Program-made: the position numbers and the translations under genes
The notes under the pieces: generated by a model
Seen by the model: the letters and a program-made list of their open reading frames with translations, nothing else
Databases searched by the model: none
What the model was told of the DNA's origin: nothing
In this document: positions 5,296 through 33,466 of the stretch, piece by piece
Layout of the letters: each line of letters starts with the position of its first letter
How positions within the stretch are numbered: the first letter of the stretch is position 1
Assembly: GCA_016839555.1 (NCBI GenBank)
Contig: JAEOUA010000006.1
Coordinates: 62,001 to 126,000 of the forward strand
From: Promethearchaeota archaeon
GTDB lineage: Archaea; Asgardarchaeota; Lokiarchaeia; Sigyniarchaeales; SOKP01
Reading direction: 5' to 3'
DNA: 64,000 nt

Positions 5296-5982
5296 TTATT
5301 CGTCTCTTTTAAAGCTGAATTTATCCCTGAAGAGGAAATAGAAAATAAGATAAAGACTAATAAGAGTAAAACTATAAAAAAAATCTTCAATCGGTATGGA
5401 AATGACTCTCAGACCTATTATTGCATCACTATTGTAGGATACAATAGGCAAATAAGTAAAAATCCCATTAAAAATTAAAAATGGAATATAAGTCAAAATT
5501 AATCCAATTAAAGTCCAGCTGGATTGAAATTTTTCGTATGCTACCAAGCCTATTAATAGCATCGTAATAAAAAAAACTATTCCAATAAGCACTGTATAAC
5601 CTTTATCTAAAAACAAGATTAAAGGTAAAATCCCAATTGAACTAATAATAATAAATACATATCTCGGAATATGAAGGATCCTCTCTTTTGTATAGGCTCG
5701 CACACACTCATATATAAAAACAGTAGCATATGGAACCGCAATAAAAAAAATCCACTCACCTATAGGAAGATTAAATATTTTTAAAGTTCCTGCATAAGTT
5801 TCTGAGAAGGACCAATGCCCAATCTCGGTTACGATAATATCCCAAATAATATAACTGCTACTAACCACCAGCATACTCAAAAGCAAAGGGGGCCATCTAC
5901 GCCAAAATCCCACCTTTTTATCAAAAGATAAAAGAAAGGGAAATATAATTACTAAGAAATTCAACCAAAAATATAGTGCCAT
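5296..5982 (-). CDS. crtY: Lycopene beta-cyclase, CrtYcd membrane type
   Basis: 228 aa, about seven transmembrane helices in two related halves. Each half carries the cyclase pattern: IIWDIIVTEIGHWSF and LPIGEWIFF in the first; FNGIFTYLPIVSY and IPIEDFFYSF in the second. This fused archaeal/fungal-type cyclase closes the ends of lycopene to give beta-carotene (family knowledge). First gene of an operon with crtI (5294) and cruF (3810). A GAGGT ribosome site sits upstream of the ATG at 5982. Its presence with CrtZ (11666) argues for cyclic xanthophyll production rather than only acyclic bacterioruberin-like pigments. Confidence 0.85.
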   Translation of the reverse strand: MALYFWLNFLVIIFPFLLSFDKKVGFWRRWPPLLLSMLVVSSSYIIWDIIVTEIGHWSFSETYAGTLKIFNLPIGEWIFFIAVPYATVFIYECVRAYTKERILHIPRYVFIIISSIGILPLILFLDKGYTVLIGIVFFITMLLIGLVAYEKFQSSWTLIGLILTYIPFLIFNGIFTYLPIVSYNSDAIIGLRVISIPIEDFFYSFTLISLYLIFYFLFRDKFSFKRDE

Positions 5983-6035
5983 ATACTTTTAACCTCATTA
6001 TCTTATAATTCTATATAAAATAATACTCACTTTTG

Positions 6036-6109
6036 CAGCTTCTTTAGCTTTATATACATATATCGAAGCTGTGTGGCATCATATTTAAAATATTATTTAC
6101 AAAGAATTA
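6036..6109 (-). promoter_or_regulatory. Promoter/leader region of the crtY-crtI-cruF operon
   Basis: Contains the minus-strand TATA-like ATATTTTAAATAT at about 6081-6093 with the TTTGTAA element before it that is shared with the glpA promoter. Just downstream, a perfect 7-bp inverted repeat (CAGCTTC at 6036-6042, GAAGCTG at 6065-6071) is separated by 22 nt, about two helical turns between repeat centres plus spacer. It could be an operator or fold in the 5' leader. No other gene is seen in 5983-6270. Confidence 0.4.
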
Positions 6110-6270
6110 CACCCCATTTAAAAGCATTCGTTTTGTAAAATATAGATAAATACTTAAAAACCGATTTATTTAAAGCTCTTCTGAAAATAGTTCTATTTGA
6201 ACTGAATTTGAAACTAAGATTTAGTATTGTATACTTTCTTTCGTATTATCATTCCCTTTTTATTTTAATC

Positions 6271-7362
6271 CTAAAATAAATGCTCATCTACTATTTTAGA
6301 GCCATATTCTGCCTGGTGTACTCTTACTATATTATTTTCTGGAATGCCGATATTTTGGATCATATTTTGTACAGCATCTAGATCTTCAGTTCTACACAAA
6401 CAATGAATATTTGGGCCTGCATCAACGGTGAAATAACATTCAATCCCTTCTTTCTCTTTTTGCTTAACACCCTCTTCAACCATCTTATAAGTTTGGAAAA
6501 AATTATTTCGAGTATTTACTACCGCCTTTATTACCTTCAATGTATTTGGTTTCCAATAGAACAACGGGGGTTCCGAGGTCATCATAACACTATGCATATA
6601 CAAACAACTTTTCTCGGAGATCTCTCCCACAGTAGTAAAATCATCATTTTGAATTGCTTTTTTAATTTCTACGGCTTGTTTCTGGGATTCATTTATTTTA
6701 ATCTGATTGAAAACACTGGAGTGTGCCGCTTCTTGTCCTATATCAGAACTCACCTCTTTTTCTCCTCTATCGATTACTGCAATTACCGCAGCTATATTGA
6801 ATTCATTACATGGACATATTTGTTCTGCATAAGAAGTATCGTGAGAATATCCTTTATTCCAACATACGAATCCTCCATGAAGAGAGCGAGATGCGGAACC
6901 AGAACCTAATCTTGCATATTTTGAGAGTTCTATATTGTCTAAATTAAGGTTTAACGCATCAGCAGCACTAGTAGCGAGCGCAGCGAATGCAGATGATGAT
7001 GACGCTAACCCTGCAGCTGTCGGAAATTTATTTTGACTGACCATTTTAAAATTTAAAGTTGTACTCGCTAATTTTCTTAACGCATCAACCACTTTTAATA
7101 TTCTTTTCATCTGAATCTCATTAAAGGGAACTATAATCTCATCAGTTTTCAAAAAGCCCGTATCTTCATCATAATGTTCAGAAAATTCAATGGTGGTATG
7201 AGTAATCAATTCGATTCCTGATTTGGCAGTATTGATTGATTCCTTCGTCATGCTAACGCTGTCATTTGTAGGAATATTAAGGTGTGGTGGATGATCTCGA
7301 GATTTACCCCAATATTTTATCAGAGCAATATTTGGGTGTGCGAATGCTGAAGACTTTCCCAT
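6271..7362 (-). CDS. mvaD: Mevalonate (di)phosphate decarboxylase family, GHMP kinase fold
   Basis: 363 aa. N-terminal AHPNIALIKYWGK and LNIPTNDSVSMT are the family signature; the phosphate-binding loop is AAGLASSSSAFAALA near residues 115-129; SGSASRSLHGGFV follows; the catalytic aspartate is D314 in TVDAGPN. The enzyme makes isopentenyl diphosphate (or isopentenyl phosphate) by ATP-driven decarboxylation. Archaeal relatives may use mevalonate-5-phosphate, 3,5-bisphosphomevalonate or the diphosphate, and sequence reading alone does not settle which. Divergent from HMG-CoA reductase across a 278-nt regulatory gap. Confidence 0.85.
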   Translation of the reverse strand: MGKSSAFAHPNIALIKYWGKSRDHPPHLNIPTNDSVSMTKESINTAKSGIELITHTTIEFSEHYDEDTGFLKTDEIIVPFNEIQMKRILKVVDALRKLASTTLNFKMVSQNKFPTAAGLASSSSAFAALATSAADALNLNLDNIELSKYARLGSGSASRSLHGGFVCWNKGYSHDTSYAEQICPCNEFNIAAVIAVIDRGEKEVSSDIGQEAAHSSVFNQIKINESQKQAVEIKKAIQNDDFTTVGEISEKSCLYMHSVMMTSEPPLFYWKPNTLKVIKAVVNTRNNFFQTYKMVEEGVKQKEKEGIECYFTVDAGPNIHCLCRTEDLDAVQNMIQNIGIPENNIVRVHQAEYGSKIVDEHLF

Positions 7363-7532
7363 TTTCTTATTTTATCCTCTTTTTATAATAAGCTATAAAT
7401 ATTATTCAAATATTATTGCGATTGTATTAATAACTTATGTTAATAATTAATATATTCATCTATAAATAAAGGTATTAAGTAAAAGAGGTTCTAATCTTAA
7501 GATTTTTTTAGAAAAGCTCTTCCAAGAATTAC

Positions 7533-11194: not shown

Positions 11195-11665
11195 TATGTT
11201 AATTTTTTAAAACTAATTTTTATAATTTGTTTTTATTAAATATTAATTTTCAAATAAGATCAGAATAGAGAAAGAAAGTTAAAATATAGTGAGAACATAG
11301 AAAAATTGAAAAAAAGGCTTTAAATGATATTTTTTAAACTCTAATATCTCATATAGGTTCATAATGCTATAAAACTATTGATTTAGATAGGAGAATCAAA
11401 TTTTTGAGAACTTAATAAATAATTATGATAAAAATTTATATGCAGTCACCTTAAGATTTAATTATCTGAGAAGATAAACATAAAGCAAAAATGAAGAGAT
11501 CACCTTCAAAATTTAAAATATATACATTAGATTTTGACATCTCGAAAAATTTATAGTTTAATGATGGATATAGCAAATTCTATTTTACAAATTATTGAAA
11601 CAGAACACGTAAATATAATATAAAACAAAGTTTTAAATTTATCCTTATTTTATAATAAAAATAAT
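11195..11665. other. Divergent intergenic region between crtB and crtZ
   Basis: 471 nt, very AT-rich, no credible gene. A TATA-like TTTTAAATTT at 11631-11640 sits about 25-30 nt before the crtZ start, so crtZ is probably transcribed with almost no leader. Only a 21-codon open frame near 11491 without coding character was seen. The minus-strand crtB promoter must lie near its left end. Confidence 0.4.
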
Positions 11666-12181
11666 ATGGTAAATCTTTTTGATTATTTGCCTTATCCATA
11701 CGGAATAATAATTTCTATAGGTGCTATTATCTTTGCTACAGTATCAATGGAAGGTGTAGCATGGTTTCTTCACAGGTACGTGATGCACCAATTTGGTTGG
11801 TATCTTCATGAGGACCATCATCGATATACAAAAGGAAGATTCCAAAAGAACGATATTTTTGCCTTGATTTTTGCGATATTATCAATAATATTAATTATTC
11901 TTGGATTAAGAGTATACAATCTTCTCTTCTGGTTGGGAATGGGTGTTTCTATATATGGTTTGGGTTATTTTCTCTTTCACGATGTATTATTTCACAAGAG
12001 GATAAAAAATCACTATCGACCAAAAAAAGAGTATATGAAGAGAATATTCGATGCTCACTCATATCATCATCAAACTACTAATTCAAAGGGATCGGGGGGA
12101 TATTCATATGGTTTCCTCTATGCTTCTAAGAAATATAGCACTTTAATAAAAGATTTACAAATAAAAAAGAAGAATGTATAA
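11666..12181 (+). CDS. crtZ: Beta-carotene hydroxylase (CrtZ type)
   Basis: 171 aa membrane di-iron hydroxylase. All four histidine clusters are visible: HRYVMH (36-41), HEDHH (48-52), HDVLFH (105-110) and HSYHH (131-135), plus GW between the first two as in CrtZ. Two to three membrane helices lie between. It hydroxylates beta-ionone rings (beta-carotene to cryptoxanthin and zeaxanthin) and needs molecular oxygen (family knowledge), which suggests at least episodic oxic or micro-oxic life. Only 6 nt from the HMG-CoA synthase gene, so co-transcribed with it. Confidence 0.9.
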   Translation: MVNLFDYLPYPYGIIISIGAIIFATVSMEGVAWFLHRYVMHQFGWYLHEDHHRYTKGRFQKNDIFALIFAILSIILIILGLRVYNLLFWLGMGVSIYGLGYFLFHDVLFHKRIKNHYRPKKEYMKRIFDAHSYHHQTTNSKGSGGYSYGFLYASKKYSTLIKDLQIKKKNV

Positions 12182-22399: not shown

Positions 22400-22888
22400 T
22401 TATTCTTTAAAATTTATAGGTAATTCTTTCCAAAACTTACAACCCATACACTGAAGAATTTGCTTTCTTTCTCCTTTTTCATTAATCATGATTGTTTTTA
22501 CCATTTTTTCATTACATTTAGTACAAACGCCCATTATTTTTCTTGAAGTTAATGATTCTTTTTCTAAGCGGCGCAATTTTCTTATTCGTTCTATTCTTTT
22601 CTGAGCACTGGCAAGGTCATCATATAGCTCTACATAACTCACTTTAAAATTTCCATCAAAGCGTTTGGTATATCTATCTCTCTTTTCAATATGATCCTTA
22701 AGTCGTTTGGCGGGATTCTTTGCAGAATCGGTATAATAGAGAAAATCATTGCTTTCCTTTGTGAGAGCTTTTTTGTTCTTATAGCATTTTAATACATACA
22801 CGCAAGAATCATAAAGCTTAGAGAAGTTGGAATCAATTGAGATATTTTTAATTTTTTCCATATTATGTGTGAAACATATTCTATCCAA
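22400..22888 (-). CDS. GIY-YIG nuclease domain protein with zinc ribbon
   Basis: 162 aa. Residues 30-115 follow the GIY-YIG pattern: VYVLKC as the first strand, FLYYTDSAKNPAKRL for the second, then KVSYVELYDDLASAQKRIERI for the catalytic helix region. The YIG glycine is replaced (YYT). Residues 125-160 hold a four-cysteine zinc ribbon (CTKC ... CMGC). Such proteins cut or bind branched DNA; many small ones are of unknown role. It borders the accessory island that starts here. The frame begins at an ATG with no strong ribosome site. Confidence 0.6.
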   Translation of the reverse strand: MDRICFTHNMEKIKNISIDSNFSKLYDSCVYVLKCYKNKKALTKESNDFLYYTDSAKNPAKRLKDHIEKRDRYTKRFDGNFKVSYVELYDDLASAQKRIERIRKLRRLEKESLTSRKIMGVCTKCNEKMVKTIMINEKGERKQILQCMGCKFWKELPINFKE

Positions 22889-23227: not shown

Positions 23228-24295
23228 TTAATCATAAGCATTCACATCTCTCTGGGCAATAAAAAACCATCCGACCGTCTTCTCTAAGGTTTTAAAATCG
23301 ATACTCAATTTTAGTGGAATTTCTTCATCAAGATGGAGCGTTATTATGGAATTGTCTTCAAATAAAAAGGAGGAGACCTTTTTAAGATTGTCAATAGAGA
23401 TATAGACTTTAATTCTTTCTTTTATATCTTGAGAATTAAATTGTATCTTATGAATATCTTTATTTTCCCACCTAATATTTGTATTTCCTTCCTCATTATT
23501 ATCATAAAAATGTATGAAACTATTTGTTAGTTGAATTCCGATACCTTCAGAAAACCTACCCGCTTGAGATGTAATATGAAAGAATTTGTCCTTATCGAGA
23601 GAACAACACCCTTTATATTTCAGTTCGATTAATTCATCTAATATAATCTTATTTTCATAGTTGATTTTTACATCATTTATGTTTCTAGATATTTTAGACT
23701 TGAGAATGGGAGAAGATTGAATAATTTCAATTTTTTCTTCATTAAACCCAAAATTTGTGGTGATTTTCTCAGATTTATCACATTCCAGGCACTTTAATAA
23801 GGAGTCTAAATTAACGAGAAGATCTAATTGCTTGTTTAAGAAAAATTGACTATTATCACTTTTTAAAATAATATCAAATAGGTAAGTCTTAGCTTCGTTT
23901 GTTGTATAGGCGTGGATTTCATTATAAAGAATCCTAAAAACTATTTTATCATTAGATTCCCTTAGGGCTTTAAACACTTTAAATAACGAGTATCCATCTC
24001 TAAATTCTATTTCGCATAAATAAGTATGTTTCTTCCTTTCCTGTAGATAATTAAAAAGTTCTACTTTAAATCTGGCGATAGCTTCGCTTAAAATCTCGCT
24101 ACTGGTTGAAATATTTTTGAGTTTGATAAGTTCAGATATTCGATGGAACAAAAAATCCAAAATTTCTGAAGAAATTTGTGAATCTTCATCATTTAGAAGA
24201 ATGGGACTTATTTTTTCATAATCCTTTATCCAATCTGTTCTATTTATATTTAATAGATTTACGATCTTTTTTATCTGTTCATCGTGCCTACCCAA
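23228..24295 (-). CDS. Divergent sliding-clamp (PCNA-like) protein with N-terminal helical extension
   Basis: 355 aa, not a housekeeping PCNA. Residues 93-350 line up with the two-domain clamp layout: GYSLFKVFKALRESND and IVFRILYNEIHAYTTNEA (domain 1 start), LDLLVNLDSLLKCLECDKS (domain 1 second half), ELIELKYKGCCSLDKDKFFH (domain 2 start), KVYISIDNLKKVSSF and the ending KTVGWFFIAQR, comparable to the PCNA end YYLAPK. Residues 1-90 are an extra mostly helical region. It is divergently oriented to the methyltransferase gene with a 270-nt gap. A partner-specific clamp for the adjacent restriction-like system, or a 9-1-1-like clamp, are both possible. Recognition is by pattern, not search. Confidence 0.5.
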   Translation of the reverse strand: MGRHDEQIKKIVNLLNINRTDWIKDYEKISPILLNDEDSQISSEILDFLFHRISELIKLKNISTSSEILSEAIARFKVELFNYLQERKKHTYLCEIEFRDGYSLFKVFKALRESNDKIVFRILYNEIHAYTTNEAKTYLFDIILKSDNSQFFLNKQLDLLVNLDSLLKCLECDKSEKITTNFGFNEEKIEIIQSSPILKSKISRNINDVKINYENKIILDELIELKYKGCCSLDKDKFFHITSQAGRFSEGIGIQLTNSFIHFYDNNEEGNTNIRWENKDIHKIQFNSQDIKERIKVYISIDNLKKVSSFLFEDNSIITLHLDEEIPLKLSIDFKTLEKTVGWFFIAQRDVNAYD

Positions 24296-24471
24296 TTCGG
24301 CAAATCTTTCCCAGAGATCGACAGAATGATTATTAGGTTTTGTGATAGTATCATCTCTAAACTATATATTCTTAAAATTATCTACAACCAAGTTTAAATA
24401 CTAATAAGAAATTGTTAATTCGGCGATAAAAATAATAAATATTTAAGGTAGTATATAGATATATTAAAGTG

Positions 24472-24549
24472 ATGATTAAATTAGATTCAGGGATTTATCC
24501 TTTCGATATTCTTAGATCCGACAATTATCTATTTAGCATCTACATCTAA
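24472..24549 (+). CDS. Possible 25-residue leader peptide
   Basis: An ATG preceded by AAAGTG opens a 25-codon frame (MIKLDSGIYPFDILRSDNY, then six more) that ends 16 nt before the methyltransferase start. A TATA-like TATTTAAGG lies about 30 nt upstream (24438-24447). It could be a leader peptide, a gene remnant or chance. No homologue recognised. Confidence 0.25.
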   Translation: MIKLDSGIYPFDILRSDNYLFSIYI

Positions 24550-24565
24550 TCGAAGAGTGATTATA

Positions 24566-27500
24566 ATGGAAGTAAGTAAAGAAACTAGGATGAGAATTAG
24601 TGAATATCTTAGCAAGATTAAATCAGCTAAGGATTTATTTGAACTTTTTAGGACTCTCAACTACCCAGAAGATATAGTTTTTGATATATCTGCTAAAAGA
24701 AAGAAGGAAACATTTGAATTTAGGAAAGATGACGATGAAAAAATTAAAGAGATATATTCAATACTAAGTATAGAAAATAAAACACATATTTTTCTCCTTG
24801 AGACTACCTCTATTGCGCCTTCCTTTATTAGAAGTGTGACAGCAACTTTCGATCGACAATATCTTAACTTTTTACTAATAATAACTCTTGATTATTCAGA
24901 AATAGTGTTTGTTTTTCCTAATCGTGAAAAGATTAATGGAGATCAGCATAAATTAAAATTAACGAAACTAATTATCAATACTACTGAAATTTATTATACG
25001 GATATTCAAACCATATCAACACTATTATATGAAGAAGGGATAAAGCGACGCCAGTTGTGGCGTCAATGGAAATCAGCATTTAGTGTGGAAAGAGTTACGA
25101 AGAACTTCTTTGATGATTATAAAAAAATTTTTTTCTTACTCAAAAATGAATTTTCTAATCAAGGAATTCCAAAAAAAGAATCACACGAATTTACGCTACA
25201 ATTACTCAATAGAATAATGTTTGTCTATTTTATATCAAAAAAACAGGGTTGGCTTAACACTAAGAGATTTATGAAATGGTTTTGGGAATCTTATAAAAAG
25301 CAAGAAAAATATGATAGTGATGAATTTTACGAAATTTGGTCAAAACAGTTATTCTTTAAGGCATTTAATAATCAATCGAATCTTTTATCTGACCTTCCAA
25401 GTGAAATAAAAAAGGAAATATCTAATTTCCCATTCCTTAATGGTGGATTATTTACTTCAAATGATCTAGATGCTTTAGAAATAAAAATTTCTGATAGATT
25501 ATATGAGAAAATCCATAAATTCTATGAGAAATACAACTTCACCATTAAAGAAGATATGCCTCTTGAAGAAGAAGTTGCTGTTGATCCCCAAATGATCGGA
25601 TATGTCTACGAATCCTTAGCTAATGTAGCCGAAGAGATCTATGACCGTCACGATTTAGGAATTTTTTATACTCCTCGAGTAGAAGTAGATTTTATGGCAA
25701 GAAGAGTATTAATTGAATATCTCTCAAAAAATCTTGAGAATATTCCAAAAGAAAAATTATACCATCTTATTTTTGATCCCCCTGAAGATAAAAAGAAAAT
25801 TATTAATGATTTTGATGAGAAAATCTGGCGTAGGATTGAAGAAATATTAGACAACTTATCCGCCGTCGATCCTGCTTGTGGTTCGGGTGCATTTCTTGTT
25901 GGATTACTTAATGTATTAACAGAATTGTACCATTTAATATATCAACAACTTAATCGAAAATCTACAGATTTTGAATTGAAGAAAAGAATTATTCAATATT
26001 CCCTTTATGGTGTTGATATAATGCCTTGGGCAATTCACGCTGCTGAATTGAGATTATGGTTACAGCTTATGGTCGAAACAGAATTAAAAAAAGAAGAGCT
26101 TAGAAAATACCCTCTATTGCCAAATCTAGATTTAAATTTAAGAATTGGTGATTCTTTAGTACAAGAAATTGGGGGACAATATTTTAATCTTAGAACTAGT
26201 GATTTAGAAGCTTCAATAAAAAAGAAATTATTAATTCTAAAGGATGAAAAACGAAATTATTTTGATAATTTGCCTAGAGCTAAATTTAAAACCCCATTAG
26301 AAATTAAGGAAGAAGAATTAAGATTGTTTGAAGAAATTATTGAAAGTCGCCTAAATATTTTAAAGAGAGAAATAACTAATTTAAAAAATAACATAAAAAG
26401 AGCAAAATCACAAAAAGATTTATATGGAAAAGTAATAGTTGATGAAAAGAAAGTAAAAGCATTACAAAAACAAATTGATGAAAAAGAAAGGTTTATTCTC
26501 GACTTAAATGAAATCAAGAGACTAATTGATATACCAGGGAAAAAACCATTTATTTGGGATATTGACTTTGCTGAAATATTTGGAGAAAAAAATGGTTTTG
26601 ATATTGTTATTGGTAATCCTCCATATGTTAAGCAAGATGATATTGCTCCATTTAATAAAATGAAATCTGAAATTACTTCAAAAGAAAAACAATTATATAA
26701 AGATAAACTTATAAAGTCTGTTATTAATCAATTTCCAGTGATAACCTCAATAGCAAAAAAATGTGATTATTTTATCTATTTCTATTTTCACGGATTAAGT
26801 TTGCTGAATGAAAAGGGAGCTTTTTGTTTCATTACATCTAATTCCTGGTTGGATGCTAAATATAGTAAAAGTCTTCAAGAATTTCTAATAAAATATGTCC
26901 CTATTATTGCAATTTATGATAATGCTAAAAGAACATTCAAACACGCTCTTGTAAATACTATAATTTCTGTTTTTGGATCACCATTAATCGTAGAAAGAAG
27001 AATTGCAGGTCTTAAAGTAATAAAAAAAAGGGACTGGAAGATGTTGGATTATACAGCTAAATTTGTGATGTTTAAAAAACCATTTGAAGAAGTTATAAAT
27101 ACAAAAAATCTACTATATATTGAAAAAATAGAATTAAAAGTTCAAGGCTCCGAAATCGTAGATATTATAGAAAATATCATCCGAACCGAAGATTATCGGG
27201 TATTTCCAATTACTCAAAAGAATCTTTTAGAAGAAGGATGGGTTTACCCTGATAATTATAAGAAAAGTGAAGGATTTTTCAAAAAAGGTTCTTACAATGG
27301 GGAAAAATGGGGAAAATACTTACGGGCTCCAGATATTTATTTTAATATTATAGAGAAGGGGAAAGAAAATCTTGTTCTACTCGATAAAATTGCTGTGGTT
27401 AATGAAGGAAGACCCACTGGAGCGAATAATTATTTTTTTATGCCTATTCAAATTGCTAAGAAATTTAATATAGAAAATGAGTTTTTATTGAACGGAATTA

Positions 27501-28201
27501 TGAAAACCAGAGGTAAGAGTTACTTTATAATAGATGAAGATATGATAGAGAGATATTTTCTACAGATTGACTCGGAAGAGAATGAAATTGAAGATAAAAA
27601 TGTAATGAAATATATTAAATATGGTGAGGAAAATGTATTACCAAAAAGCAAAACACTGAAATCTAAAAATATATGGTGGAAATTTACAAATAGAGATGCT
27701 GCAGATTTATTAGCTCCGTGTGGTTATGGTAAAACAACCTTTTGTGCTATAAATAAAGCAAAAGCAGTAACAAGTAATAGTTATGTAGAAATAAGACTAG
27801 TTGATAAAGATTATTTAACCCCTCTATTTTATTTCTTGAATTCTGCTATTGGGTGGTTATTTTTGGAAATAATTGGAAGACATTCTCTTGGGGGTGGTAT
27901 GTTAAAAGTAGATCCAATAGAATATCGTCAATTATTGGTTTTAAAAAAAGAGCTATTTCAAGAACAAACTATCCCGCCAAATCGTAAAATAAAATCAGTT
28001 TTTATCGAATGTGGATTTAATCCTTCTAAACCAATAAGAGAGCAAATACCTAATCCAATTAATGAAAGGCATATTATAGATGATATTATTTTTGAAAAAC
28101 TTAAATTAAACGAAGAAGAAAGAAATGAAGTTTATTGGAGCGTTTGTGAACTAATAAAACAAAGAACTGATAAAGCTAAAAGTCTTAAAAAAAATAAATA
28201 A
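24566..28201 (+). CDS. Large adenine-specific DNA methyltransferase, Eco57I/type IIG-like (PglX/DrmMI-like)
   Basis: 1211 aa from the ATG at 24566 (the GTG at 24557 belongs to the GTGATT ribosome site). An N-terminal domain of about 200 residues without recognised catalytic motif is followed by a helical region, then the N6-adenine methylase core: motif I DPACGSGAFLVG at 435 and motif IV GNPPYVKQD with N684. Between them sits a long coiled-coil insert (about 555-645). The C-terminal 400 residues resemble a TaqI/Eco57I target-recognition domain (GRPTGANNYFF, WKFTNRDAADLL). Immediately followed by a PLD-helicase gene. Together they fit a restriction or anti-phage system in which this protein marks self DNA. 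Confidence 0.85.
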   Translation: MEVSKETRMRISEYLSKIKSAKDLFELFRTLNYPEDIVFDISAKRKKETFEFRKDDDEKIKEIYSILSIENKTHIFLLETTSIAPSFIRSVTATFDRQYLNFLLIITLDYSEIVFVFPNREKINGDQHKLKLTKLIINTTEIYYTDIQTISTLLYEEGIKRRQLWRQWKSAFSVERVTKNFFDDYKKIFFLLKNEFSNQGIPKKESHEFTLQLLNRIMFVYFISKKQGWLNTKRFMKWFWESYKKQEKYDSDEFYEIWSKQLFFKAFNNQSNLLSDLPSEIKKEISNFPFLNGGLFTSNDLDALEIKISDRLYEKIHKFYEKYNFTIKEDMPLEEEVAVDPQMIGYVYESLANVAEEIYDRHDLGIFYTPRVEVDFMARRVLIEYLSKNLENIPKEKLYHLIFDPPEDKKKIINDFDEKIWRRIEEILDNLSAVDPACGSGAFLVGLLNVLTELYHLIYQQLNRKSTDFELKKRIIQYSLYGVDIMPWAIHAAELRLWLQLMVETELKKEELRKYPLLPNLDLNLRIGDSLVQEIGGQYFNLRTSDLEASIKKKLLILKDEKRNYFDNLPRAKFKTPLEIKEEELRLFEEIIESRLNILKREITNLKNNIKRAKSQKDLYGKVIVDEKKVKALQKQIDEKERFILDLNEIKRLIDIPGKKPFIWDIDFAEIFGEKNGFDIVIGNPPYVKQDDIAPFNKMKSEITSKEKQLYKDKLIKSVINQFPVITSIAKKCDYFIYFYFHGLSLLNEKGAFCFITSNSWLDAKYSKSLQEFLIKYVPIIAIYDNAKRTFKHALVNTIISVFGSPLIVERRIAGLKVIKKRDWKMLDYTAKFVMFKKPFEEVINTKNLLYIEKIELKVQGSEIVDIIENIIRTEDYRVFPITQKNLLEEGWVYPDNYKKSEGFFKKGSYNGEKWGKYLRAPDIYFNIIEKGKENLVLLDKIAVVNEGRPTGANNYFFMPIQIAKKFNIENEFLLNGIMKTRGKSYFIIDEDMIERYFLQIDSEENEIEDKNVMKYIKYGEENVLPKSKTLKSKNIWWKFTNRDAADLLAPCGYGKTTFCAINKAKAVTSNSYVEIRLVDKDYLTPLFYFLNSAIGWLFLEIIGRHSLGGGMLKVDPIEYRQLLVLKKELFQEQTIPPNRKIKSVFIECGFNPSKPIREQIPNPINERHIIDDIIFEKLKLNEEERNEVYWSVCELIKQRTDKAKSLKKNK

Positions 28202-28216
28202 TAATGGATGAGAGAT

Positions 28217-31200
28217 ATGATACCAAAAGAGTTTATTGATAATAGCGATGGTAATAAATTACACGATTTTTTAAATGAAATTCTAAAGTATTGTCCTAAA
28301 ACTTCAGTAGATATTGCTACGGCATTCTTCAATATTGATGCCTATACGATGATACGGAAAAATCTTGAAGAAATTTCACGATTTAGATTATTATTAGGAA
28401 AACCACCTATGATAAACATTAAAACGACATTAGGCGATTTTCTTCTGAAACAAGTCAGAGAAGAGATTGAAGGATTCGATTTAACAAGAGAAATCGACGA
28501 AGATATGAAACATTTCAGAAATTTTTTGCAAAAGGACATAGTGGAAGTGAAATTATTTAAAAATTTTTTACACGGTAAAGCTTATATTTTTGACAATAGC
28601 GTAATTGTGGGGTCTTCCAATTTTACTTCAGCAGGGTTAACTCGTGAAGGCGAATTAAACACCGTCCGATTAGAAGCTCAAGCAGATGCAATTCGTTCGA
28701 AATGGTTTGAAAAATTCTGGAATTTGTCTGACGATTTTAAAAATGATTTAATAGAATTAATTGAAAATTCTAGGTTCGGGAGCCGTGAATATACTCCCTA
28801 TGAAATCTTCATTAAAACATTGTACGAATTCCAGAAAGAAGAGTTGATGGAAGAAGAGAAAGATGAAGAAACGGGGTTACCCAAAACTAAAGTTAATCTT
28901 GCCGAGTTTCAAGACGATGCGATCGCCAGAATATGGTCGAGATTGAAAAAATATAACGGATGCATCGTTGCCGATTCGGTCGGGTTAGGAAAGACTTGGA
29001 TTGCGAAAAAAATACTCGAAAAAATTGGTTATTACGAGAGGAAGAATATCTTAGTTATCTGCCCTGCTCAATTACGGCATATGTGGCGAAAGGAGCTGAA
29101 AAGCATCGATGTAAAGGAAAATATACTCTCTCAAGAGCAATTGGCGATGGATGATTTTTTGGAAAAAGCTTTGGATGTTCTAGGAGGCAGAACAGACGAT
29201 TTGGAATTGATTGTCATTGACGAAAGCCATAACTTCAGGAATCCATTATCAAATCGATGGGAAAATTTGTTTACCTTAATCAACGATCACATCGTAAAGG
29301 AAGATGTGCGCCCTAATATGCTGTTCCTTACAGCTACGCCCATTAATAATACCCCTTGGGACTTATTCTGGCAAGTTATGCTTATAACCTTGAGCGATAA
29401 TAGTGCATTCATCAAAGAAAATATCTTAGATTTGTTCTCTTTCTTCAAAAAAGCAACTTTAAATTCATCTATCCTAAATGATCTGCTCAATGAAATCTCA
29501 ATCAGAAGAACGAGAGATTATATCGTGAAAAACTACCCCGATGCGTATATAATGGTACCGAATTCTGAAGGTGTTTTGGAAGAAAAGAAAATAATCTTTC
29601 CAGACAGACTTTTGGAAAACATTAATTATAATTTAGATGTGGCTTACGAGGGGATGTATCGTCAAATAGCCGATACAATTTCGGACAAGCTAAAAATGGC
29701 ATATTATCAGCTATTAGAATATAAAAAAGAAGGTGTTCTTACCGACGCTGAAAAGCTGGCGTTAGGGCGGATGATCGGAATTGGGGGAATTTTTAAGACG
29801 ATTCTTCTCAAACGGTTGGAAAGCAGCGTTGAATCGTTTAGAATTAGTATTGATCGCCACATAACATTCTTGGAAAAGCTCAAGAAATATTTAGAAATGG
29901 GAAGGCTCCTAACCAAGAAATCTTTTCACAAATATGTCTTAAGTATAGATGAAGAATTAACCGTCGAAGAATTAAAGGAAGAACTGGAAAATTTCGATAA
30001 GGATAAATACAAAATAAAAGAACTTTTCGATGGTATAGATCTTGATATTCGATACTTATCGGACATTCTTGATAAAGTTAAAAACATAACCCCCGATAAA
30101 GATGCTAAATTCACGGTCCTGAAAGAAAAGCTACTTGAATTATCCAAAGAGGGACAAATTGTCGTTTTCACCTACTATGCAGACACATTAAATTATATTT
30201 ACAGAGAAATATTAAAAGATACCCGTTTTTCTCACTTAAATATAGAAGCAATATCCAGTACGGGTGAATCCAACAAAACGCCCAAGCAACGAACCAAAAT
30301 AATCGACGATTTTTTTGACAAGAAGATTGACATTATTTTAAGCACTGATGTATTATCTGAGGGGCAAAATCTTCAAACTGCAAAATATCTGATTAATTAC
30401 GACCTGCATTGGAACCCCACTCGTATGATTCAGAGAGCGGGAAGAATAGACCGAATCGGTTCCCCCTTCAATGAAATTTTCGTCTACAATTTCTTTCCAG
30501 AAGAAGAGCTGGAAGAACTTTTAAAGTTGGTCCAAATACTCCAAAATAAAATAGCAGACATCGATAAATCGGTTGGCTTAGATCAGACCGTTTTGGGGGA
30601 AGAAATACATCCCAAAGTGTTCGGAATAATTCGTCGGATTAGAGAAAAGGACGCCGATACATTGGACGAATTGGAAGCAGACACTTACGGCGGCGGAGAG
30701 AGTTTTTACCAACCTCTGAAAGATTTCTTAAAGACATCGGCGATTGAGAAATTAGAAGCGATTCCGAACGGTTTGTATAGTGGACTGGAAAAAACCAAGA
30801 GAATTAAAGGAATTTTCTTTTATTATAAGTATGCAAAGGATTTTCACTTTTGGTATTTATACGATATCGTGAGTAATACTATAATAACCAATAAAACGGA
30901 GATTCTCGAATATATCCAGTGCGACCAGACCGAACCCAGAGTAATTCCAGATTTTTTTGAAAAAGTATATGAAATTAACAAGGCGATATTAGAGAAAATA
31001 GAAAGAGATTATAGCGAGATTGAATTGAGCCAGACGCAAGATTCTAAACTTAAAGATATAAGCAGACAAAGATCTACCCGTTTCTTGAAAAAGTTAATGG
31101 ATGAAGTAGAATTGCAATTGGACGATTATTTAGATAAGTATCCCACGGATGACGATATCGAGAAAGAATGGGAAGAAGTAGAGGATCTTTTAGTATCCAC

Positions 31201-31390
31201 GCCTCAGACTAAAAAAAGATTGCAAGTCTTACGGAAAATTTGGAGAAAATACAAAAATAATCGAAATTGGAAAGTCTTAATAAGAGATTTAAAAGGGTTC
31301 CTTATCGGAAAAGGTGCTATTAAGAAGGAACCCTTAAAACCTTTTGATAAAACTAAATTAAAATTGATTACTTTAGATTTTATTTCCTAA
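28217..31390 (+). CDS. PLD-family nuclease fused to SNF2-type helicase
   Basis: 1058 aa from the ATG at 28217; an ATG nine bases earlier gives three more residues. Residues 1-170 are a phospholipase-D-like nuclease domain with one HKD motif (HGKAYIFD at 119-126) and SSNFTSAGL after it. Residues 235-780 are an SF2 SNF2-type motor: Walker A DSVGLGKT (253-260), DESH (335-338), TATPINN, and motif VI QRAGRIDRIG at about 739. The last 280 residues are helical and charged. DISARM DrmD is a related SNF2 helicase and DrmC a separate PLD protein; here both activities are joined and DrmA/DrmB are absent. Codon choice looks less AT-biased than the methyltransferase. 15 nt after that gene. Confidence 0.85.
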   Translation: MIPKEFIDNSDGNKLHDFLNEILKYCPKTSVDIATAFFNIDAYTMIRKNLEEISRFRLLLGKPPMINIKTTLGDFLLKQVREEIEGFDLTREIDEDMKHFRNFLQKDIVEVKLFKNFLHGKAYIFDNSVIVGSSNFTSAGLTREGELNTVRLEAQADAIRSKWFEKFWNLSDDFKNDLIELIENSRFGSREYTPYEIFIKTLYEFQKEELMEEEKDEETGLPKTKVNLAEFQDDAIARIWSRLKKYNGCIVADSVGLGKTWIAKKILEKIGYYERKNILVICPAQLRHMWRKELKSIDVKENILSQEQLAMDDFLEKALDVLGGRTDDLELIVIDESHNFRNPLSNRWENLFTLINDHIVKEDVRPNMLFLTATPINNTPWDLFWQVMLITLSDNSAFIKENILDLFSFFKKATLNSSILNDLLNEISIRRTRDYIVKNYPDAYIMVPNSEGVLEEKKIIFPDRLLENINYNLDVAYEGMYRQIADTISDKLKMAYYQLLEYKKEGVLTDAEKLALGRMIGIGGIFKTILLKRLESSVESFRISIDRHITFLEKLKKYLEMGRLLTKKSFHKYVLSIDEELTVEELKEELENFDKDKYKIKELFDGIDLDIRYLSDILDKVKNITPDKDAKFTVLKEKLLELSKEGQIVVFTYYADTLNYIYREILKDTRFSHLNIEAISSTGESNKTPKQRTKIIDDFFDKKIDIILSTDVLSEGQNLQTAKYLINYDLHWNPTRMIQRAGRIDRIGSPFNEIFVYNFFPEEELEELLKLVQILQNKIADIDKSVGLDQTVLGEEIHPKVFGIIRRIREKDADTLDELEADTYGGGESFYQPLKDFLKTSAIEKLEAIPNGLYSGLEKTKRIKGIFFYYKYAKDFHFWYLYDIVSNTIITNKTEILEYIQCDQTEPRVIPDFFEKVYEINKAILEKIERDYSEIELSQTQDSKLKDISRQRSTRFLKKLMDEVELQLDDYLDKYPTDDDIEKEWEEVEDLLVSTPQTKKRLQVLRKIWRKYKNNRNWKVLIRDLKGFLIGKGAIKKEPLKPFDKTKLKLITLDFIS

Positions 31391-32971: not shown

Positions 32972-33466
32972 TTATTTTAGGGATGACTTTTCTCTCAATC
33001 TAAGCAAATCTTGATATTGCCACTCTCGCTCTTTAATAACAGCATTATTGGCATCAGAGGAGTTAGTGGCTCTATGAATAGCTTGTAAGGCATAGATTGC
33101 AGCACCAATAGAGTGGGTTTTAACATGTGCTGTTGCAACAGCCTGACCTGTGGCGCGTGCGGCAGAGCGGGCAGCATTATCATCCCAGACTTCACGGGCA
33201 GCCTCATGAGCATCAAGTGATGCTTTGCGAATCACTGCCATTTTAAATATCCCCGTATCTATCCACATTTGGAGTGTTCTGATAGCATTTCTAGGACGAT
33301 GGTCTTTCGGAAATTGTTTCTCAAAAAATGGTAGAACACGTTCGGCACAGTGAATCGCCCAGATAGCTAAAGTTTTTTTATCAGTCTTATTCATAAGCTC
33401 TAAAATTCTCTCGTCTTTTCTGTATTGTATTAGAGAAAATTTAGATTTTTCTTTTTTAATTTTCAT
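32972..33466 (-). CDS. Imm5-like putative immunity protein
   Basis: 164 aa, all-helical. LAIWAIHCAERVLPFFEKQF, DHRPRNAIRTLQMWID, ASLDAHEAAREVWDDNAARS and ARATGQAVATAHVKTHSIGA fit the Imm5-like family often annotated as putative immunity protein, found mainly in bacteria. In polymorphic toxin systems such proteins neutralise a cognate toxin (family knowledge), but no toxin is seen here, and the family also occurs as stand-alone genes. Codon use (several CG-containing codons) differs a little from neighbours, in line with transfer. ATG at 33466; no clear ribosome site. Confidence 0.7.
   Translation of the reverse strand: MKIKKEKSKFSLIQYRKDERILELMNKTDKKTLAIWAIHCAERVLPFFEKQFPKDHRPRNAIRTLQMWIDTGIFKMAVIRKASLDAHEAAREVWDDNAARSAARATGQAVATAHVKTHSIGAAIYALQAIHRATNSSDANNAVIKEREWQYQDLLRLREKSSLK

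What the first reader, a model, noticed from the sequence alone, without database searches (positions are those of the whole stretch)
23228..31390. Clamp-like protein head-to-head with a methyltransferase and a PLD-helicase: candidate new defence system
Seen: a large Eco57I-like N6-adenine methylase and a protein joining an HKD nuclease to an SNF2 motor form a tight pair; divergently before them is a protein whose two-thirds match the PCNA two-domain pattern, with an added 90-residue helical N-terminus. Known: DISARM uses an SNF2 helicase, a PLD protein and an adenine methylase with DrmA/DrmB. Here DrmA/B are absent and the PLD is fused. Inference: a compact restriction-like system, possibly loaded or regulated by a dedicated clamp.
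Basis: partly seen in the sequence, partly recalled or inferred. Interest (0 to 1): 0.85.

Follow-up and report, generated by a model that had tools for sequence, protein, structure and literature searches.

The report
PCNA-like clamp beside restriction genes
In a Lokiarchaeia genome, a fast-evolving extra copy of the DNA sliding clamp PCNA sits next to an ordinary two-gene DNA-restriction system, and its relatives in two other Lokiarchaeia genomes sit next to different restriction genes, so the clamp may be an accessory part that several restriction systems borrow.

Summary
The 355-aa protein is a diverged PCNA paralogue: a curated pcna model matches over its whole core (E=2e-8), the predicted fold matches PCNA crystal structures (Foldseek E about 1e-18, target TM up to 0.87), and a profile of its relatives finds canonical PCNA in most Asgard genomes. 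The same genome keeps a normal PCNA elsewhere. The roughly 90-residue helical N-terminus is a new domain, found only in this family and its remnants.

The methylase plus PLD-SNF2 pair is a known kind of restriction-like module. It occurs without any clamp in other Asgard genomes and on bacterial and haloarchaeal plasmids. Clamp plus this pair occurs only here among 228 Asgard genomes, so it is not a conserved three-gene system.

The clamp family nevertheless recurs beside other restriction genes. Its closest relative (36%) lies 127 bp from a Type ISP remnant. Another is third in a McrB-McrC-clamp row, near DrmD- and DrmMI-like genes. These are the only Type ISP and McrBC loci found in, respectively, those two genomes. 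Three of eight clamps of this family touch restriction genes.

Best reading: a portable clamp accessory to restriction. The functional link is inferred and untested.

The parts
23228..24295 (-). Diverged PCNA paralogue (clamp core about residues 93-350) with an added N-terminal helical domain (about residues 1-90)
   Evidence: TIGR00590 pcna E=2e-8; AF2 pTM 0.69, core mostly pLDDT 80s-90s; PDB Foldseek top hits PCNA E about 1e-18; profile of the family hits PCNA chains of the PDB, most at E=1e-22 and weaker
24296..24340 (-). Probable extra N-terminal codons of the clamp gene, upstream of the TTG (conserved W-x2-F-A-x2-G motif)
   Evidence: In-frame translation aligned with the N-termini of five relatives
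24296..24556 (.). Divergent intergenic region between clamp and methylase genes; AT-rich, no terminator-like site found
   Evidence: Sequence; scan
24557..28201 (+). Large Eco57I-type N6-adenine DNA methylase (motif I DPACGSG at 25868-25888, motif IV NPPY at 26615-26626)
   Evidence: Pfam Eco57I E=1.4e-23; PADLOC type IIG methylase E=2e-53; motifs
28208..31390 (+). PLD (HKD) nuclease fused to SNF2 helicase, the predicted ATP-dependent restriction effector (HKD motif from about 28571)
   Evidence: Pfam PLDc_2, SNF2-rel_dom, Helicase_C; PADLOC HKD+Snf2 E=1.5e-49; conserved catalytic residues

Best explanation
The core is a two-gene restriction-like system. The Eco57I-type methylase marks host DNA at an unknown site; the PLD-SNF2 protein moves along unmarked DNA using ATP and cuts it with its PLD domain. 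The head-to-head gene encodes a Lokiarchaeia-specific PCNA paralogue with its own N-terminal helical domain. I infer that it forms a ring on DNA, alone or mixed with the normal PCNA, loaded by host RFC at primer-template junctions. Through its new N-domain and its altered partner-binding face it would tether restriction enzymes, or the methylase, to replicating DNA. That could direct cutting at invading replicons, or keep newly copied host DNA methylated. The clamp is optional and portable: relatives serve, or travel with, other restriction systems (McrBC, Type ISP). Shown: PCNA homology and fold, a separate canonical PCNA in the same genome, the pair as a widespread module, and the recurrent adjacency. 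Inferred: ring formation, loading, tethering, and any contribution to defence.
For: PCNA identity. Canonical PCNA on G000:C12. Pair as a standalone module: L051, L052, L053 and plasmids; catalytic residues kept. Recurrent restriction neighbours: the G132 clamp, sister to the window clamp with 100/100 support, lies 127 bp downstream of a Type_ISP_C gene on the same strand, the only such gene found in that genome. The G108 clamp starts 73 bp after McrC in a McrB-McrC-clamp row, the only McrBC found there, with DrmD-like (E=3e-114) and two DrmMI-like genes divergent upstream and a GmrSD gene downstream. Rough binomial, window left out: 2 of 7 clamps adjacent to restriction genes has P about 6e-5, or 5e-3 if restriction-like genes are ten times commoner than counted. 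The three restriction-adjacent intact clamps have lost the acidic C-terminal tail that canonical PCNA and the other paralogues keep. Window and G132 clamps lost the MDPSR stretch. Basic residues persist in all four inner helices.
Against: The same clamp-plus-pair combination is seen once only. At least two intact paralogues, G107 copy b and G124, have no restriction neighbour; G107 copy a and G133 lie at contig ends. The Type ISP gene next to the G132 clamp is a truncated remnant. Adjacency counts are small and partly post hoc. No PIP-box was found in the window methylase, McrB, McrC or GmrSD; the one match in each SNF2 helicase is not in an exposed tail and the window one lies in a helicase motif region. 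N-domain function is unknown. Genomes are draft MAGs. No experiment exists.
Confidence: 0.45

Rival explanations
1. The clamp has nothing to do with restriction. It is a lineage-specific PCNA paralogue with a replication or repair role that is frequently lost and relocated, and defence islands are simply where mobile genes accumulate. The pair alone is the restriction system.
For: Pair complete without a clamp elsewhere. Some paralogues sit among housekeeping-type genes. Decayed C- or N-terminal remnants in G148, G095, G104, G116, G128 and G098 show high turnover. Only one instance of clamp plus this pair.
Against: Adjacency to the sole McrBC and sole Type ISP genes found in two genomes, one in a row of three same-strand genes with a 73-bp gap. 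The restriction-adjacent clamps share a change (tail loss) not seen in the others.
Confidence: 0.4
2. Self-protection: the clamp recruits the neighbouring methylase to replication forks so that newly copied host DNA is methylated before the PLD-SNF2 nuclease can attack, as eukaryotic PCNA helps DNMT1 (from general knowledge). This is one specific form of the best explanation.
For: Head-to-head with the methylase here; two DrmMI-like methylases near the G108 clamp; Type ISP enzymes carry their own methylase (general knowledge).
Against: In G108 the immediate partner is McrBC, which has no methylase. No PIP-box in the methylases beside clamps.
Confidence: 0.2
3. A true conserved three-component clamp-restriction system.
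For: Divergent arrangement; an 85%-identical helicase remnant in another genus shows that the pair moves.
Against: Pair relatives in Asgards and plasmids lack the clamp; the clamp lies beside this pair only once in 228 genomes.
Confidence: 0.08
4. The clamp is a captured viral or plasmid replication clamp.
For: Fast evolution; many viral PCNAs match the fold.
Against: No relative in the viral-contig, phage or plasmid collections. The family is confined to one Lokiarchaeia family and its profile finds Lokiarchaeia PCNA best.
Confidence: 0.05

Closest known systems
PCNA (archaeal and eukaryotic sliding clamp)
   Same: Two-domain clamp fold, homologous by profile and fold, basic residues in inner helices
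   Different: About 20% identical to the canonical Lokiarchaeia PCNA, new N-terminal helical domain, altered MDPSR and linker regions, acidic tail lost; a normal PCNA is present as well
HKD-SNF2 helicase plus N6-methylase restriction-like modules (PADLOC 'HKD+Snf2'; homologous pairs on plasmids)
   Same: Same two proteins, adjacent or in one row, catalytic residues kept
   Different: A clamp gene is divergent next to it here; other copies carry different extra genes (DUF262, SLATT plus nucleotidyltransferase, sigma factor)
Type-2 BR (DUF499-centred BREX-related) systems, PMC12839542
   Same: N6-methylase plus N-terminal HKD fused to a Swi2/Snf2 helicase
   Different: No DUF499 ATPase and no DUF3780 gene next to the pair
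DISARM class 1 (DrmD, DrmMI, DrmC, DrmA, DrmB)
   Same: SNF2 helicase related to DrmD, methylase distantly like DrmMI, PLD nuclease
   Different: No DrmA or DrmB; PLD fused to the helicase; scores far below the curated DrmD cut-off (155 against 610 bits)

Membership tests
PCNA superfamily | Two-domain clamp fold over the whole core | tested here: met
   AF2 model and Foldseek against PDB, TM to target up to 0.87
PCNA superfamily | Sequence homology to PCNA | tested here: met
   TIGR00590 E=2e-8, below its curated cut-off; family profile matches PCNA chains of the PDB
PCNA superfamily | Ring-shaped trimer that encircles DNA | not testable with these tools
   Only monomer prediction available; basic residues in inner helices kept
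Canonical replicative PCNA | Orthologous to the conserved Lokiarchaeia PCNA | tested here: not met
   Canonical PCNA is a different gene at G000:C12; the window clamp groups outside the canonical sequences on a long branch
DISARM | DrmA and DrmB present | tested here: not met
   No DrmB hit and no separate DrmA gene among the eight neighbouring genes
DISARM | DrmD above curated threshold | tested here: not met
   155 bits against 610
Type-2 BR (DUF499-centred) | DUF499 ATPase next to methylase and HKD-SNF2 | tested here: not met
   No DUF499 among neighbouring genes tested; definition from PMC12839542
Methylase plus HKD-SNF2 restriction-like pair | Large N6-methylase and HKD-SNF2 protein encoded together, motifs intact | tested here: met
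Methylase plus HKD-SNF2 restriction-like pair | Restricts foreign DNA | not testable with these tools
   Needs an experiment

The most novel reading that the evidence does not exclude
Lokiarchaeia carry a dedicated sliding clamp, with its own partner-binding domain, that works as a shared targeting or self-protection subunit for unrelated restriction systems (methylase plus PLD-SNF2, Type ISP, McrBC). This would be clamp-guided restriction, of which I found no report.
Probability: 0.3. Interest if true: 0.8.

Novelty: new variant of a known kind. Interest (0 to 1): 0.55.

Why it matters
If the link is real, it would join DNA replication machinery to restriction in the archaea closest to eukaryotes, and offer an answer to how restriction tells replicating invader DNA from replicating host DNA. 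Even if not, it documents a fast-evolving, N-extended PCNA paralogue in Lokiarchaeia that I did not find described in the papers searched.

Tried and rejected
The seven-row alignment A1 had no stretch conserved enough for the contig search; a four-row subset worked. Viral, phage and plasmid searches for the clamp found nothing. A PIP-box scan of the neighbouring restriction proteins found no convincing site. No conserved PD-(D/E)XK motif was visible in the methylase N-terminus, so the PLD domain is taken as the nuclease. The N-domain matches no Pfam family or PDB chain convincingly. No flanking repeats, tRNA or RNA family that would mark an insertion. Two searches for flanking genes in the genus found no genome with both flanks, so an empty site could not be shown. 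Papers: no clamp in restriction loci found.

Full report
Observation. The three genes are present exactly as described. The + strand methylase (1214 aa) and PLD-SNF2 protein (1060 aa) are 6 bp apart; the - strand clamp gene (355 aa) is 261 bp upstream and divergent. The genome is a Lokiarchaeia MAG: named relatives of the clamp come from Lokiarchaeota/Lokiarchaeia MAGs in the same GTDB family as the window.

The clamp. Single-sequence Pfam scores are weak but collinear (PCNA_N E=0.007, PCNA_C E=0.07), and NCBIfam's pcna model spans residues 95-335 at E=2e-8, below its curated cut-off. A profile built from the protein and six relatives matches PCNA chains of the PDB, single-copy ones from E=1e-22, and canonical PCNA in most of 228 Asgard genomes. 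AlphaFold2 gives a core with pLDDT mostly in the 80s-90s whose best PDB matches are all PCNA, target TM up to 0.87. The genome also has an ordinary 267-aa PCNA on another contig. The protein is therefore a diverged PCNA paralogue. Basic residues persist in each of the four inner helices, consistent with a DNA-lining surface; ring formation itself was not tested.

The N-terminal domain. About 90 residues, helical, modelled at low confidence. A profile of this region finds this clamp family and short fragments in other Lokiarchaeia genomes (G116 twice, G128, G098), besides a few marginal hits, and has no convincing Pfam or PDB match. C-terminal clamp fragments occur in G148, G095 and G104. The family thus turns over quickly. 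In the window gene the conserved W-x2-(L/F)-A-x2-G motif lies in frame upstream of the annotated TTG, without a standard start codon.

The pair. The methylase has Eco57I motifs I and IV. The helicase has an HKD motif and the SNF2 motor, with catalytic residues invariant among eight homologues. Homologous pairs occur without a clamp in Asgard genomes G156, G085 and G008 and on plasmids of Planktothrix, Calothrix, Microcystis, Deinococcus and Halorubrum; the Mycobacterium helicase also has a large gene directly upstream, but it did not match the window methylase at E=1e-4. On several plasmids variable genes lie between methylase and helicase: a DUF262 protein in Deinococcus, SLATT plus nucleotidyltransferase in Microcystis, a sigma factor in Planktothrix. 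A 459-bp remnant 85% identical to the helicase 3' end lies in another Lokiarchaeia genus (G095), so the module moves. It is related to, but not a member of, DISARM (no DrmA or DrmB; DrmD score 155 against a cut-off of 610) or the DUF499-centred BR systems described in PMC12839542 (no DUF499 or DUF3780 found).

Neighbourhoods of the clamp family. Eight loci were read. Window: methylase plus PLD-SNF2. G132 (closest relative, 36%, no N-domain): 127 bp downstream of a truncated Type ISP gene on the same strand, the only Type_ISP_C match in that genome. G108: third after McrB and McrC with a 73-bp gap, the only McrBC match in that genome, with a DrmD-like helicase (E=3e-114) and two DrmMI-like methylases divergent upstream and a GmrSD gene downstream. 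G117: a C-terminal clamp fragment beside a truncated AAA_15 ATPase. G107 copy b and G124: no restriction gene. G107 copy a and G133: at contig ends, one side unseen. A rough binomial with the window left out gives P about 6e-5 for two of seven touching a restriction gene, and 5e-3 if restriction-like genes are ten times commoner than counted. This is a small, partly post hoc sample, and the estimate assumes one gene per kilobase.

Sequence correlates. The three restriction-adjacent intact clamps lack the acidic tail (such as EDMDEF) shared by canonical PCNA and the other paralogues, and window and G132 have lost the MDPSR stretch that is nearly constant otherwise. From general knowledge this stretch includes part of the pocket that binds PIP-box partners. 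No PIP-box was found in the window methylase, McrBC or GmrSD proteins. Together this suggests a changed set of partners.

Mechanism. Most likely the pair restricts unmodified DNA on its own, and the clamp adds an optional tether to replicating DNA, either aiming the nuclease at replicating invaders or keeping host daughter strands methylated. Only homology, fold, catalytic motifs and adjacency are shown; the rest is inference. The main rival is that the clamp is a fast-turning-over replication or repair paralogue that lands in defence islands by chance.

Verdict. The clamp call was right and non-trivial; the 'new three-gene defence system' is not supported as a conserved unit; a recurrent PCNA paralogue next to varied restriction genes in Lokiarchaeia is the real and modestly surprising finding.

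Noticed in passing
L010 (G108:C1:5000-24900) with L016: Dense defence island: two DrmMI-like methylases, DrmD-like helicase, McrB, McrC, PCNA paralogue, GmrSD (Orf5/HEC-06 type), and a 1797-aa protein without Pfam match. DrmA and DrmB were not seen in the stretch read.
   Followed up: partly
L050 (G095:C534) 11256-11711: Remnant of the helicase 3' end, 85% identical DNA to the window, with no methylase or clamp nearby; a sign of transfer and decay.
   Followed up: yes
L111-L116 (plasmids): Methylase and HKD-SNF2 pairs on plasmids carry different inserted genes between them (DUF262, SLATT plus nucleotidyltransferase, sigma-70), suggesting an accessory-gene slot.
   Followed up: partly
L127, L133 (G116), L128 (G128), L129 (G098): Short standalone matches to the clamp's N-terminal domain, probably decayed copies.
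   Followed up: partly
window 24296-24358 (-): Conserved N-terminal residues of the clamp are in frame upstream of the TTG but lack a start codon; an ATG at 24354-24352 is out of frame.
   Followed up: partly
window 22400-22888 (-) and 32972-33466 (-): GIY-YIG nuclease-like protein and an Imm5-like immunity protein flank the module.
   Followed up: no
L049 (G003:C224) 5821-7513: PLD-SNF2 homologue 57-59% identical to the window's in a different Asgard family, cut by the contig end, with an acyl-CoA ligase-like gene rather than a methylase upstream.
   Followed up: no
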